A stretch of 64,000 nt of DNA. Source: Rhizobium leguminosarum bv. trifolii WSM1325 (GTDB taxonomy: Bacteria; Pseudomonadota; Alphaproteobacteria; Rhizobiales; Rhizobiaceae). Shown here piece by piece: positions 5,996 through 50,610 of the stretch. Location of the stretch: contig CP001622.1 of assembly GCA_000023185.1 (NCBI GenBank), positions 4,680,501 through 4,744,500 on the forward strand, written 5' to 3'. The translations under genes and the position numbers were made by a program. Within the stretch, counting starts at the first letter, position 1. Every line of letters starts with the position of its first letter. The notes beneath the pieces were generated by a model. It had not been told where the DNA came from. It saw nothing but the letters and a program-made list of their open reading frames with translations, and ran no database searches.

Positions 5996-6730
5996 TCAAT
6001 AGGGGCTGGCTGTCGGTCGGATGATGATCTCGCTGACATCGACATCATCAGGCTGGCTGACGGCGTAGAGGATCGAATTGGCGACGGCCTCGGGGCTGAT
6101 GGTGATCGCCCTGAAAGCCTTCATGGCATCACGCGCCGTCGGATCGGTGATGGTGTCGGCGAGTTCCGATGTCGTCGTGCCCGGAGAGATGACGGTGACG
6201 CGGATACGATCGGACTCCTGCCGCAGTCCGTCCGAGATCGCCCGTACCGCGAATTTCGTCGCGCAATAGACAACCGCCGTCGGAGAGACGCTGTGGCCGC
6301 CGATCGAAGACAGGTTGATGATCTGCCCTGATCCCTGCGCCTTCATGATCGGAAGCGCCGCCGCAACGCCATAGAGAACACCCTTGATATTGACGTCGAC
6401 CATCCGGTCCCATTCGTCGACCTTGAGGGCGTCGAGTAGCGACAGCGGCATGACGCCGGCATTGTTGACGATAACGTCCAGCCGTCCGAATTCGGAGCGG
6501 GCGAAGCCTGCAAAGGCTTCCACCTGGGAACGGTCGGTGACGTCAAGCTGTCGCCGGCGCACCGACCCGCCCTTTGCGGCGATTTCGCCGGCGAGTTCCT
6601 CCAGGCGCTCGGTGCGGCGGGCGCCGATGACGATATGGGCGCCTGCGGCAGCCAGCACCTTTGCCGCGGCCTCTCCGATGCCGCTGCTGGCGCCGGTGAT
6701 GGCAATGACTTTCCCTTTGATATCAGACAT
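5996..6730 (-). CDS. SDR family oxidoreductase
   Basis: 244-residue classical short-chain dehydrogenase. The cofactor motif TGASSGIG is at 12-19, NNAG at 88-91, and the catalytic Ser141, Tyr154 and Lys158 (YCATK) are in place. Arg residues after the second strand (GARR) suggest NADP(H) preference. The start at 6730 has GGAG ten bases upstream, better than the in-frame ATG at 6742. It is the last gene of a likely three-gene operon (Atu4866 protein, a second SDR, this SDR) read away from a LysR gene, with 38 bases between the two SDRs. The substrate cannot be deduced. Confidence 0.9.
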   Translation of the reverse strand: MSDIKGKVIAITGASSGIGEAAAKVLAAAGAHIVIGARRTERLEELAGEIAAKGGSVRRRQLDVTDRSQVEAFAGFARSEFGRLDVIVNNAGVMPLSLLDALKVDEWDRMVDVNIKGVLYGVAAALPIMKAQGSGQIINLSSIGGHSVSPTAVVYCATKFAVRAISDGLRQESDRIRVTVISPGTTTSELADTITDPTARDAMKAFRAITISPEAVANSILYAVSQPDDVDVSEIIIRPTASPY

Positions 6731-6768
6731 TTCAAGCTCCATTTTTGCAGGTGAGATTTTCGTTACGG

Positions 6769-7611
6769 TTAGCTTGGAAAATCGGCGCTGAGCGTCGTCT
6801 CCGCCCAGGCGTCGAAATTTGTGCGCAGCGCATCGAGCCGTTCGCGGGCGATCTTCAGGGCGGGTGCACCGAGCAGCAGGCGCAGCGGCGGCACGTCCGC
6901 TTCGAACGCCGATATGATCGCGGTTGCCGCGCGCGCGGGATCGCCCGGCTGGTTGCCGGAGATCGAGCGGGTGGCCTGGCGCCGCTTGCCTGACGTTTCG
7001 GCGTAGTCTTCGATGATCGTGCTGGATTCGACCATCGACCGGCCGGCCCAATCCGTGCGGAAGGCGCCCGGTTCAAGGATCGTCACATCGATGCCAAGCG
7101 GCCTGACCTCATGCGAAAGCGATTCCGACAAGCCTTCGACCGCGAACTTGGTGGCATGGTAATAGCCGGTTGCGGCAAAAGCGACGAGCCCGCCGAGCGA
7201 AGAGACGTTGAAGATATGCCCTTGCCGGCGTCGGCGCATGCCCGGCAGAACCTGCTTGGTGACGGCGATCAGTCCGAAGACATTGGTCTCGAACTGGGCG
7301 CGTATCTCGGCATCATCGCCCTCTTCGATCGCCGAGAAGTAGCCGTAACCGGCATTGTTGACGAGGACGTCGATCGCACCGAAATGCGTTTCGGCGTCAC
7401 GAACCGCGCCGGCGATGGAGCGGCTGTCCGTCACATCGAGTGCAAGGGCAAGCGCGGGGTCGCCGTGTTGCGCCGTGAGATCTGCCAGGGTCTCGGGTCT
7501 GCGCGCTGTAACAGCGGCGCGCCAGCCACGGGCCAGCACGGCTTCGGCGAGCGCCCGGCCGAGGCCGGACGATGCGCCGGTGATGAACCAGATGGGTGTT
7601 GGGGAAGACAT
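6769..7611 (-). CDS. SDR family oxidoreductase
   Basis: 280-residue short-chain dehydrogenase with TGASSGLG at 11-18, NNAG at 85-88, Ser138 and Tyr151-xxx-Lys155 (YHATK). It is of the longer type usually annotated as oxidoreductase/SDR with a C-terminal extension ending LSADFPS. Start 7611 (MSSPTP) has AAAGGA about eight bases upstream; an ATG at 7620 would leave no spacing. It sits between the Atu4866-like secreted protein and another SDR, all on the minus strand and probably co-transcribed under the divergent LysR regulator. Cofactor is probably NADP(H), from the TARR after beta 2; substrate unknown. Confidence 0.9.
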   Translation of the reverse strand: MSSPTPIWFITGASSGLGRALAEAVLARGWRAAVTARRPETLADLTAQHGDPALALALDVTDSRSIAGAVRDAETHFGAIDVLVNNAGYGYFSAIEEGDDAEIRAQFETNVFGLIAVTKQVLPGMRRRRQGHIFNVSSLGGLVAFAATGYYHATKFAVEGLSESLSHEVRPLGIDVTILEPGAFRTDWAGRSMVESSTIIEDYAETSGKRRQATRSISGNQPGDPARAATAIISAFEADVPPLRLLLGAPALKIARERLDALRTNFDAWAETTLSADFPS

Positions 7612-46167: not shown

Positions 46168-47700
46168 ATGGTCGCGCGTGTCAGTACGGTTGCATTTCAG
46201 GGTATCGAAGGTGTACCGGTCGAGGTCCAGGTCATGGTCGCTCCCGGTAAGGTCGGCATGCAGATCGTCGGCCTGCCTGACAAGGCGGTTGCCGAAAGCC
46301 GCGAGCGCGTACAGGCCGCCCTCCACGCCTCCGGCCTGGCGCTGCCGGCGAAGCGCGTGACGGTCAATCTGGCGCCTGCTGACCTGCCGAAAGAGGGCTC
46401 GCATTTCGATCTGCCGATCGCGCTCGCCCTGATGGCCGCCCTCGGCGCCATTCCCGCCGATGCGCTGTCGGATTTTGTCGTCGTCGGCGAGCTCAACCTC
46501 GATGGAACGATCGCCGCCATATCCGGCGCGTTGCCGGCTGCGATCGGCGCCAATGCGCTCGGCAAGGGGCTGATCTGCCCGGCCGAAAGCGGCGCCGAAG
46601 CCGCCTGGGCGGGCGCGGACGTCGATATCCTCGCACCCCGCAGCCTGATCGCCCTTGCCAATCATTTCCGCGGCACGCAGGTCCTGTCCCGGCCGGAAGC
46701 GTCGATCCGCGCCAATGCCGCAAACCTGCCTGATCTTGCCGAGATCAAGGGCCAGGAAAGCGCCAAGCGGGCGCTGGAGGTCGCAGCCGCCGGCGGTCAT
46801 AACCTTCTGATGGTCGGTCCTCCGGGCTCCGGCAAGTCGATGCTGGCGGCCAGGCTGCCGTCGATCCTGCCGCCGCTTTCGGCCGCCGAGCTGCTTGAGG
46901 TGTCGATGGTTCATTCGATCGCCGGCCAGCTCTCCGGCGGCAAGCTTTCCGATCGAAGGCCCTTCCGTACCCCGCATCATTCCGCCACCATGGCAGCCCT
47001 CGTCGGCGGCGGTCTGCGCGCCCGTCCGGGCGAAGCCTCGCTTGCCCATCACGGCGTGCTCTTTCTCGACGAGTTTCCCGAATTCACGCCGCAGGCGCTC
47101 GATGCGCTGCGCCAGCCGCTCGAAGGCGGTGAATGCGTTATTGCGCGCGCCAATCACCGCGTCTCCTATCCGGCGAAATTCCAGCTGATCGCGGCGATGA
47201 ACCCCTGCCGCTGCGGCATGGCGGGAGAGCCTGGCCATAGCTGCGCCCGTGGCCCGCGCTGCATGAGCGATTACCAGGCCCGCATCTCCGGCCCGCTGAT
47301 GGACCGCATCGATATCCGTATCGACGTGCCGGCCGTCTCCGCCGCCGATCTGATCCGGCCGATGGCGGCTGAAACCAGTGCCGACGTCGCCCGCCGCGTC
47401 GCCCGCGCCCGCGAGATCCAGCAGGAGCGCTTCGAAAGCACCGGCGCAAAGGGCATCGGCACCAATGCCCGCTGCTCCACCGCGATGATCGAGAAACTGG
47501 CCGAGCCCGATGCCCCTGGCCTGCAGCTGCTGCGCGACGCCGCCGAAAAAATGAAATTCTCCGCCCGCGGTTACCACCGCGTCCTGAAGGTCGCCCGCAC
47601 GCTGGCCGATCTCGACGGCAAGCCCACGGTCGGCCGCATCCATCTCGCTGAGGCGATCTCCTACAGGATCGCGGGTGAGAGGTTGACGGCGGCGGCGTAA
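46168..47700 (+). CDS. comM: ComM/YifB family Mg-chelatase-like AAA+ ATPase
   Basis: 510-residue protein with an N-terminal Lon-like domain, a central AAA+ ATPase (GPPGSGKS at 217-224; Walker B LFLDEFPEF) and a C-terminal Mg-chelatase domain. In naturally competent bacteria ComM is a branch-migration helicase used in DNA uptake recombination; in rhizobia its role is unproved. It appears complete and intact. AAGGGATGGGCTT precedes the start. Directly after its stop, a second partial copy of its own 5' part begins (see next entries), so the locus has been rearranged. Confidence 0.95.
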   Translation: MVARVSTVAFQGIEGVPVEVQVMVAPGKVGMQIVGLPDKAVAESRERVQAALHASGLALPAKRVTVNLAPADLPKEGSHFDLPIALALMAALGAIPADALSDFVVVGELNLDGTIAAISGALPAAIGANALGKGLICPAESGAEAAWAGADVDILAPRSLIALANHFRGTQVLSRPEASIRANAANLPDLAEIKGQESAKRALEVAAAGGHNLLMVGPPGSGKSMLAARLPSILPPLSAAELLEVSMVHSIAGQLSGGKLSDRRPFRTPHHSATMAALVGGGLRARPGEASLAHHGVLFLDEFPEFTPQALDALRQPLEGGECVIARANHRVSYPAKFQLIAAMNPCRCGMAGEPGHSCARGPRCMSDYQARISGPLMDRIDIRIDVPAVSAADLIRPMAAETSADVARRVARAREIQQERFESTGAKGIGTNARCSTAMIEKLAEPDAPGLQLLRDAAEKMKFSARGYHRVLKVARTLADLDGKPTVGRIHLAEAISYRIAGERLTAAA

Positions 47701-47711
47701 GAAAAGGGGCA

Positions 47712-48010
47712 ATTGTCGGACTGTTTGACAAGGCGGTTGCCGAAAGCCGCGAGCGCGTGCAGGCCGCCCTCCACGCCTCCGGCCTGGCGCTGCCGGCGAA
47801 GCGGGTGACGGTCAATCTGGCGCCTGCCGACCTGCCGAAGAAAGGCTCGCATTTCGACCTGCCGATCGCCCTTGCCCTGATGGCTGCCCTCGGCGCTATT
47901 CCCGCCGATGCACTGTCGGATTTTGTCGTCGTCGGCGAGCTCAACCTCGACGGAAGGATCGCCGCCATATGAGGCGCAATGCCAGGCTGCGATCGGCGCC
48001 AATGCGCTCG
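47712..48010 (+). pseudogene. comM: Tandem fragment of comM, codons about 33-132
   Basis: About 299 bases that repeat comM positions 46264-46561 almost base for base (I estimate about nine in ten bases equal). It begins at GTCGGACTGTTTGACAAGG, equivalent to GTCGGCCTGCCTGACAAGG in comM, and ends at GGCGCCAATGCGCTCG. An in-frame TGA lies at 47970-47972, and some bases are lost or changed near the right end. It cannot make a working protein. The lower-GC unrecognised gene follows directly. A recent duplication, or DNA brought in by recombination at comM, would explain it. Confidence 0.85.
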
Positions 48011-48117
48011 TGGTTAGTTAGCCCAGAACGTGCAGGTCGCCGATCTATCAATTTGAGCGTTCAGAATTTATGGATGTGGGTCGCCGTCACCGGTCGTTTC
48101 GCGGCGAGATAATTTGT

Positions 48118-49116
48118 ATGCGGAGATTCAGTGTGGAACCCGAGGAATATGAACTGCTCAAAGCGGCATGCGAAGCCACGGCAGCCAGTCACCCTGATTT
48201 ACAAAGGAGCCAACGAGAATCCCCAGACGAGAGTGCAAAATCAATTGAAGATGAGATATCGGGTTTCCTCGGAGCGATATGGCAGGATCGTAAAACCGTC
48301 TATGATTCCGCTGAACAAGCGCTACAGCCCCTGTGCCTCCTATATGATTTGGCGCTGTTGCAGGTCTGCGACCTGTCACACTTTGGGCTGAAGAATGCAC
48401 ATCATCGAAGCCGAGTGATATGGCCAGAAGCCCAATTACCAGTCCAGCCATCTCCTAATGCCGTTTTCTATGTTTTGGCCTCCAACCTAGCCCAATCCAT
48501 GCAGGCCTTTCGTCTACTGGTTCTTCATGGATTCGAAGGGCAGGCCCGAGCAACCTTCAGAGGAGTGATCGAGACTGCGGACTTGCTGATTATGGTCTTG
48601 GCAAGTGAAGCGACGTATCGAGAATTCATAAAATCCTTTGAAGACCCTAGCGAGAGCTACAAACACTGGAGAAGCCATCTATCTCCATCGAAAATTAGGG
48701 CTGCCGTTTCGCTGCTGGAAGACGACGATCCGCTTTCCATCCCAATCGATCAGACGCCGAACGAAGTCAGAAAGGATATGTATCAGTGGCTTTCCAACTT
48801 CGTTCATGTGAATTTTGTTGCTCACATTGTTGCAGCTCATCCAGAAGATTTTGCTGGAAACTCTCGACCGCTCGCGATGCTCGGAGACGTAGGTGAGGCG
48901 TCGAGGGCGACACTTGCCCACGGCCTGCTATACCTTTGGATTACCTTGCTGAGGATTGAGAAATTGCTTTGGGAACAGCATTGCTGGAAAGGTTTCCGGG
49001 GAAAGCGCTCCCGAAAATGGTTCAAATATCGCTGCCGTGCATTGGACGAACTGTTCCTGTCCTATCTGCCGACGTATTGGGAAAAGAACCCTGTAGCTGG
49101 CACGCAGTCCATATAG
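48118..49116 (+). CDS. Unrecognised protein in the comM insertion
   Basis: 333 residues if started at 48118 (349 from 48070; neither has a clear Shine-Dalgarno). I do not recognise a family. The sequence is mostly helical-looking and acidic at first (PEEYELLKAACEAT, SIEDEISGFLG), then holds QARATFRGVIETADLL, DMYQWLSNFVHVNFVAHI and LAHGLLYLWITLLRIEKLLWEQ, ending in a basic patch (GKRSRKWFKYRC). No signal peptide; one or two weakly hydrophobic helices. Codon use is plainly different from the neighbours, with many AGA, AGG, ATA and CTA codons and lower GC, so recent transfer is likely. A helical HEPN/DUF5677-like fold is a loose guess from pattern only. It is flanked by comM remnants. Confidence 0.65.
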   Translation: MRRFSVEPEEYELLKAACEATAASHPDLQRSQRESPDESAKSIEDEISGFLGAIWQDRKTVYDSAEQALQPLCLLYDLALLQVCDLSHFGLKNAHHRSRVIWPEAQLPVQPSPNAVFYVLASNLAQSMQAFRLLVLHGFEGQARATFRGVIETADLLIMVLASEATYREFIKSFEDPSESYKHWRSHLSPSKIRAAVSLLEDDDPLSIPIDQTPNEVRKDMYQWLSNFVHVNFVAHIVAAHPEDFAGNSRPLAMLGDVGEASRATLAHGLLYLWITLLRIEKLLWEQHCWKGFRGKRSRKWFKYRCRALDELFLSYLPTYWEKNPVAGTQSI

Positions 49117-49376
49117 GCGGCCCGGGACGATTTCATCGAGAACCCTCCGGTGGACCCCTCCATGATCGGGGAGGCCAAAACGCGGATGAGCAGGCCGAGA
49201 TTTGCCAAGCGGCGAGCGATGCGAGGTATGCAATCAAGGCTATCATCTACTTCACCGCGTCCGAGCTGGTGAGGGTGAAGGCCATCCTCAACAGGCTTGG
49301 TTTGGAGGATAATACGGATGTGGTTTTGCTCGATGCACGACGTGACAATAAGCCATCCGTCTCCAAGGCCGCATGA
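49117..49376 (+). pseudogene. Possible remnant coding segment of the insertion
   Basis: The region reads in fragments that look protein-like but in different frames: DDFIENPPVDPSMIGEAKTR in one frame near the beginning, then YAIKAIIYFTASELVRVKAI and NTDVVLLDARRD in another (ending at 49376). No start codon with a ribosome site opens the second part. This suggests a decayed gene, but chance open frames cannot be excluded. It is also low in GC compared with the backbone. Confidence 0.3.
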
Positions 49377-49436
49377 CAGAAGCGGTCACCTACCGCATCG
49401 CCGGCGATACAGACTGACGGCTGTGGCGTAGCAAAT
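49377..49436 (+). pseudogene. comM: 3'-terminal comM-like fragment
   Basis: About 55 bases that align with the last codons and the stop of comM (47648-47705): GAAGCGGTCACCTACCGCAT against GAGGCGATCTCCTACAGGAT, then TGACGGCTGTGGCGTAG against TGACGGCGGCGGCGTAA, and both then run into an AGGGGC sequence. Identity is clearly lower than for the 5' fragment. It marks the right end of the insertion. Confidence 0.6.
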
Positions 49437-49456
49437 AGGGGCGCCAAAGCGCCCCT
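49437..49456 (-). terminator. Terminator after cysK
   Basis: AGGGGCGC and GCGCCCCT, perfect arms with a 4-base loop, followed on the minus strand by ATTT. It is placed 48 bases after the cysK stop. Confidence 0.55.
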
Positions 49457-49503: not shown

Positions 49504-50466
<963 letters not shown>

Positions 50467-50610
50467 GGGTGCCTCCCTTTGAAATCCTGTCCTTGAAATC
50501 GAGGAGGAGAATAGGGTCAAAGACCGGTCTAGGCCAGCCCGCCTTCATCCCGGGGAGGCGGTCCTCGGAGAAAATAACCTTTGAAAACCGTTTCTTGCCG
50601 AATGTTTATT

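What the first reader, a model, noticed from the sequence alone, without database searches (positions are those of the whole stretch)
47712..49436. Lower-GC insertion framed by two comM remnants next to intact comM
Seen: downstream of complete comM there is (1) a near-copy of comM codons about 33-132 with an internal stop, (2) about 1.4 kb of visibly lower-GC DNA with an unknown 333-residue gene and a decayed segment, and (3) a fragment matching the last comM codons and stop. So the insertion sits where the middle of a second comM would be. No transposase or integrase is present. Known: comM is a repeated insertion target for AbaR-type islands in Acinetobacter; whether it is a hotspot in rhizobia I cannot say. 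Inference: an islet acquired at comM by recombination, leaving a rebuilt intact comM.
Basis: partly seen in the sequence, partly recalled or inferred. Interest (0 to 1): 0.8.

Follow-up and report, generated by a model that had tools for sequence, protein, structure and literature searches.

The report
Mobile-DNA islet beside fossil comM copy
In rhizobia the DNA-recombination gene comM is a repeated landing site for mobile DNA, and this stretch looks like the scar of one such landing: a working comM stands next to the leftovers of an older, broken comM that still holds one foreign gene.

Summary
After intact comM (46168-47700) come a 299-nt near-copy of comM codons ~33-132 (92%, one stop), ~1.37 kb of ~50% GC DNA, a decayed comM C-terminus, the terminator and cysK. 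G069, a sister species, has the same layout. Where the comM copy ends, a match (86.5%) to a mobilizable element of Rhizobium tropici begins; it carries one gene under purifying selection (weakly DUF5677-like, function unknown).

comM is a hotspot in this genus. Of 148 genomes, 6 have comM split at codons ~207-217 (Walker A); 5 of these 6 inserts carry a large serine recombinase. Two more are split near codon 77. Among 42 genomes of the window's group (window included) with full comM and cysK in hand, 31 hold at least 700 bp between the two, in 13 cargo clusters. G017 is a little-decayed intermediate; G011 shows three comM generations.

Best reading: an element broke comM; a working comM later stood upstream as an extra copy; old comM and element decayed to one cargo gene. 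It is not an AbaR/Tn7-type island. How the extra comM arrived (one-sided recombination, or duplication plus allele replacement) is unsettled.

The parts
46168..47700 (+). intact comM (510 aa), the working copy
   Evidence: TIGR00368, 522 bits; ORF
47701..47711 (+). 11-nt stub between comM stop and old comM; resembles the start of the native terminator flank, but too short to score
   Evidence: window score 29, shuffle 30
47712..48010 (+). remnant of older comM, codons ~33-132, TGA at codon 119
48010..49092 (+). DNA shared (86.5%) with a mobilizable element of R. tropici PTD1 (L114)
48070..49116 (+). cargo gene, 348 aa from the first start (332 aa from 48118), weakly DUF5677-like, all-helical model
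49124..49178 (+). scrap matching L114 next to its Rep-like gene (85%)
49211..49372 (+). scrap matching the 3' end of a 512-aa ORF beside an MmeI-like gene (pWSM1274_1, 71.6%)
49377..49436 (+). decayed comM C-terminal codons (~494-510) and stop region
49437..49456 (.). terminator-like hairpin GGGGCGCC/GCGCCCC that follows comM directly in short-gap species
49504..50469 (-). cysK, right flank of the hotspot
   Evidence: PALP domain

Best explanation
comM of Rhizobium is an insertion gene for site-specific mobile elements. In the lineage of this window element DNA entered comM and broke it (inferred). A working comM then stood upstream as an extra copy, running from the normal comM start to 11 nt past its stop and joined to old comM near codon 32 (structure shown, route inferred). 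The old copy decayed around the element until codons ~33-132, one cargo gene under purifying selection, two scraps and the comM tail were left (anatomy shown, order inferred). The unit is 99.4% identical in two sister species whose flanking comM and cysK are 96-97% identical, so it was exchanged more recently than its flanks (shown). The cargo may be an anti-invader gene, judged only by what sits at this place in relatives (weak inference).
For: Element homology starts where the comM copy ends. comM is split at codons ~207-217 in 6 and near codon 77 in 2 of 148 genomes; junctions; serine recombinases in 5 of the 6 (Pfam in G025, G110, G130, G144; G162 by tblastn). G017 shows intact comM, then old comM to nt 638 ending on an element end, 5.3 kb of cargo, and more old comM. 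G011 has an intact comM and two fossils. Third-position bias between fossil and intact copy: 16/22, 18/25, 40/51, 13/15. Native 3' flank repeated after the upstream comM, running 44 nt into cysK in G068. Islet 9 differences in 1,622 nt against 58 in 1,533 (comM) and 31 in 966 (cysK), window vs G069.
Against: No element ends or recombinase in the window islet. Window break points differ from the known insertion sites. The tree cannot tell whether the window's fossil is foreign to its own comM (p-AU 0.48 and 0.50). The L114 relative of the cargo is in a tyrosine-integrase element, not a serine-recombinase one. In one search, of 35 loci plus one internal fossil, only about 8 show native flank clearly above shuffles; the window does not.
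Confidence: 0.6

Rival explanations
1. Duplication first: comM was duplicated in tandem (second copy from codon ~32), and DNA later landed harmlessly in the spare copy, which acts as a decoy; ordinary recombination then replaced the working comM by other alleles.
For: By eye, G000, G069, G011, G113 and G017, and perhaps the G012 group, share a similar junction just after the stop, which suggests one old event. Window and G069 fossils are not rejected as kin of their own comM.
Against: Decay in place without allele replacement does not fit the third-position bias (P 0.01, 0.008, 2e-6, 0.001 against a rough expectation of 46% that I made). Eight genomes have the single comM itself broken, so the spare is not where insertion usually starts. 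G068 has another junction.
Confidence: 0.27
2. The mobile element itself carried a comM piece or whole comM that mended the gene on entry, as some islands do with their target gene.
For: Structure of intact gene, cargo, displaced 3' end resembles such islands in G026, G082 and G119.
Against: The inserts that split comM in G016, G025, G110, G130, G144 and G162 leave both halves broken; no comM match inside the fetched inserts was seen (those of G025 and G144 were read in two pieces each). Upstream copies carry native terminator and even cysK sequence, which an element would not need.
Confidence: 0.08
3. Chance mosaic: unrelated insertions and deletions in a loose intergenic gap, comM pieces being incidental.
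For: 13 cargo clusters in 31 gaps, many without a detectable comM fossil.
Against: Tails in native order before the terminator in 7 loci, 0 of 46 in shuffles, 1 of 46 on the opposite strand; G017 joins fossil comM to an element end.
Confidence: 0.05

Closest known systems
AbaR/AbGRI and other islands in comM of Acinetobacter baumannii (PMC11472951, passages read)
   Same: comM interrupted in its Mg-chelatase domain by mobile DNA, often with defence systems such as CBASS; recovery of comM by recombination discussed there
   Different: AbaR is Tn7-like and leaves comM broken; here comM is intact with a fossil copy, no tni-type genes were matched, and relatives use large serine recombinases
Elements in comM of Aggregatibacter, Mannheimia, Francisella, Pseudomonas syringae (PMC4774983, passages read)
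   Same: integrase-driven insertion at an orthologous comM position
   Different: integrase related to CF65_00446 there; I did not compare that protein; no fossil second comM is described in the passages I read
Cassette elements moved by large serine recombinases (SCC/Ccr type)
   Same: G110 recombinase has weak hits to CcrB, CcrC and CcrA (47.8, 35.1, 35.4 bits)
   Different: far below the curated cut-offs (700-900 bits); different target gene; none in the window islet
DUF5677 (PF18928)
   Same: residues 115-171 of the cargo protein resemble the start of the profile
   Different: 20.2 bits, below the 27.1 cut-off; function unknown

Membership tests
AbaR/Tn7-like comM island | comM interrupted by the island | tested here: not met
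   window comM is a full 510-aa frame
AbaR/Tn7-like comM island | tni transposition genes at the island ends (set recalled; tniA, tniC and orf4 named in PMC11472951) | tested here: not met
   islet ORFs have no transposase match; no search with tni proteins was made
AbaR/Tn7-like comM island | 5-bp target duplication (recalled) | not tested
   shortest repeat searched was 14 nt
Serine-recombinase element in comM (as in G025, G110, G130, G144, G162) | junction at comM codons ~207-217 with the element end motif | tested here: not met
   window breaks at codons ~132 and ~494; no convincing end motif
Serine-recombinase element in comM (as in G025, G110, G130, G144, G162) | large serine recombinase gene | tested here: not met
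   none among the two main islet ORFs; present in relatives
Remnant of a mobilizable element (R. tropici L114 type) | homologous cargo DNA plus backbone | tested here: inconclusive
   cargo 86.5% and a 55-nt scrap 85%; relaxase, Rep-like gene and integrase absent from the islet
DUF5677 | Pfam gathering score | tested here: not met
   20.2 against 27.1 bits
Known anti-phage defence protein | match to a PADLOC model | tested here: not met
   0 families up to E 1

The most novel reading that the evidence does not exclude
Rhizobia run a repeating break-and-add cycle at comM. Elements target the ATP-binding codons of the gene that helps cells recombine foreign DNA; the cell regains comM by taking in another lineage's comM through one-sided recombination upstream, keeping the broken copy with its cargo. 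Repeated rounds stack fossil comM copies and single, often defence-like, genes between comM and cysK, a readable record of the conflict between mobile elements and recombination.
Probability: 0.36. Interest if true: 0.78.

Novelty: new variant of a known kind. Interest (0 to 1): 0.56.

Why it matters
comM interruption is known from several bacteria, and recovery of comM by recombination has been raised as a possibility (PMC11472951, PMC4774983, passages read). Here recovery seems to leave fossils, so the order and number of break and repair events can be read from sequence in many species. That would make the idea of element-against-transformation conflict directly testable in rhizobia. The comM-cysK gap is also a short, easily amplified place to look for new single-gene cargo.

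Full report
WHAT IS THERE. The window is G000:C1:4680501-4744500 of a 7.4 Mb genome; the closest named relative of the cargo protein is from Rhizobium leguminosarum bv. viciae (98%). comM (46168-47700) is complete: TIGR00368, 522 bits. After its stop come 11 nt, then a copy of comM codons ~33-132 at 92% with a TGA at codon 119. Then comes DNA of about 50% GC with one ORF (48070-49116), two scraps, a decayed comM end (49377-49436), a terminator-like hairpin and cysK. The tail is weak inside the window: it beats 500 shuffles, but 1 of 1,237 other pieces ties it. It is firmer across relatives (controls 0 of 46 shuffled, 1 of 46 on the opposite strand).

ORIGIN OF THE CARGO. The protein has 42 database relatives at E <= 0.001 but occurs in only 3 of 148 genomes of the genus: the window's, G069 at the same place, and G167 elsewhere. 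Its 88% relative in R. tropici PTD1 (L114) lies among a relaxase with weak Mob_Pre and MobV matches, an HNH gene, a gene with a weak Rep_1 match and a tyrosine integrase. The DNA match to L114 begins at window 48010, where the comM copy ends, and a 55-nt scrap (49124-49178) matches beside the Rep-like gene. Over 326 codons dN is 0.073 and dS 0.528, so the protein has been kept working. Function unknown: DUF5677 below cut-off, no PADLOC match, generic helical fold.

comM AS A HOTSPOT. My count from the capped listing of 148 genomes: 117 with comM full length or nearly so (G113 and G006 lose frame or match near the end); 6 split by 3.6-37 kb at codons ~207-217 (G016, G025, G110, G130, G144, G162); 2 split near codon 77 across contigs (G005, G010); 5 with abutting fragments; G089 lacking codons 1-30; 2 truncated (G111 at a contig end, G084); 5 with scattered fragments; 10 without a match. 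A TIGR00368 search of 17 of them (the 10, the 5, G089 and G000) passed the cut-off only in G000 and G089. Junctions at codons 207-217 show two end families: left ACGTTGTGCTACATTAAT with right ATTAATGTAG (G025, G162; left end only in G017 and, with a few changes, in G016), and left ACAAAAGACCC with right ends like GGGTCTTTTGT (G144; G130 and G110 with changes). Pfam finds Resolvase and Recombinase domains in the right-end genes of G110, G025, G144 and G130; G162 has a homolog by tblastn. The 3.6-kb insert of G016 shows one large ORF, with STAND NTPase and HTH matches. The first family's junction also occurs in two other genera (3 of 297 genomes, G017 among them; control 0); the second family's in 0 of 297. 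On the G005 contig that holds comM codons 1-77, a CBASS cyclase and phospholipase lie about 8-11 kb from the junction; that they belong to the same element is inferred.

THE comM-cysK GAP. In short-gap species such as G149, G157 and G136 a terminator follows comM directly and the gap is 55-67 nt. Of 42 genomes in hand with comM at 95% or more to the window's, full comM and cysK (G000 and G069 included; G071, G089, G111, G086, G144, G084, G104 and G005 left out for lack of one or the other), 31 have at least 700 bp there and 11 under 400. The 31 fall into 13 clusters linked by matches of 300 bp or more. Cargo proteins that I chose to scan include two bSEFIR proteins (G034, G119), reverse transcriptases with retron-type matches (G005, G068), an NPHP3_N/NACHT-like protein (G113), PIN and PLD proteins (G017), DUF4037 (G026) and, below cut-off, Abi_alpha (G112); no Pfam match for those of G103, G082, G122 and G012. 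Several gaps hold comM fossils, many hold none that I could detect.

INTERMEDIATES. G017: intact comM, old comM nt 112-638 ending on the first family's element end, 5.3 kb, old comM nt 625-725, then cysK. G011: intact comM; a first fossil (nt 103-220, 1145-1239, 1462-1532) with its own terminator-like flank; a segment 96% identical to G026's with the DUF4037 gene; a second fossil (nt 667-719 and the stop). That is three comM generations and, by inference, at least two rounds.

HOW THE SECOND comM CAME. Fossil and intact copies differ mostly at third codon positions: 16 of 22 (G000), 18 of 25 (G069), 40 of 51 (G017), 13 of 15 (G068). If a dead copy had simply decayed beside its parent, about 46% would be expected by a rough calculation of mine; P is 0.01, 0.008, 2e-6 and 0.001. 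Older fossils (G012, G085, G007, G120) show a weaker bias and more indels. In the tree G017's fossil goes with G074/G113 and not with its own comM (support 96/51); held with its own comM the fit is worse (p-AU 0.035 for the pair, 0.067 with G023 and G120; groups chosen after seeing the tree), and for the window nothing is rejected (0.48, 0.50). Native 3' flank is repeated after the upstream comM in some loci: of 35 loci and one internal fossil tested, clear cases are G068 (99 of 113 nt, running 44 nt into cysK), G119 (43/48), G082 (34/39), G064 (25/29), G026 (27/29), G011's first fossil (32/38), and, shorter or offset, G122 and G112; most others, the window among them, do not exceed shuffles, of which only three were made per locus. 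G088 and G090 score high on a stretch away from the comM end. One homologous and one ragged edge is what homology-assisted illegitimate recombination gives (recalled); tandem duplication followed by allele replacement would look the same.

MOVEMENT OF THE UNIT. Window and G069 differ at 9 of 1,622 islet positions counted (remnant, cargo, scraps, tail), at 58 of 1,533 in comM and at 31 of 966 in cysK, so the islet was exchanged more recently than its flanks.

KNOWN AND NEW. comM as an element target is known, and comM recovery by recombination is discussed (PMC11472951, PMC4774983; passages read). I found no report for rhizobia; some searches were too noisy to count. New, as far as these searches go, are the rhizobial hotspot, its serine recombinases at the Walker A codons, and the fossil second comM. 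I file it as a new variant of a known kind.

Noticed in passing
G087, G074, G121, G140, G142, G126 and others, comM-cysK gap: In 10 loci the gap holds 3 to 15 copies of a 7-bp repeat (GAATAGC/GCTATTC), several of them without the usual terminator.
   Followed up: partly
L111 (G089): About 10 kb of IS-like DNA lies between gshB and comM, and comM starts at codon 31, close to where the fossil copies of other species start.
   Followed up: partly
G024, G075, G076, G078, G092, G001, G100, G123, G003, G165: No comM match and none over the TIGR00368 cut-off: comM seems lost in about 10 of 148 genomes.
   Followed up: partly
L087 (G144) 230-1954: A second serine-recombinase-like ORF lies inside the 37-kb insert, as if elements were nested (by eye).
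   Followed up: no
L042 (G005) 6302-7517: A reverse transcriptase with a retron-type VI match and an HTH ORF just upstream lie between comM and cysK; the HTH was read by eye.
   Followed up: partly
G012, G007, G009, G066, G067, G085, G120: Seven species share a related gap segment with a ~160-250-aa ORF; the G012 one has no Pfam match.
   Followed up: partly
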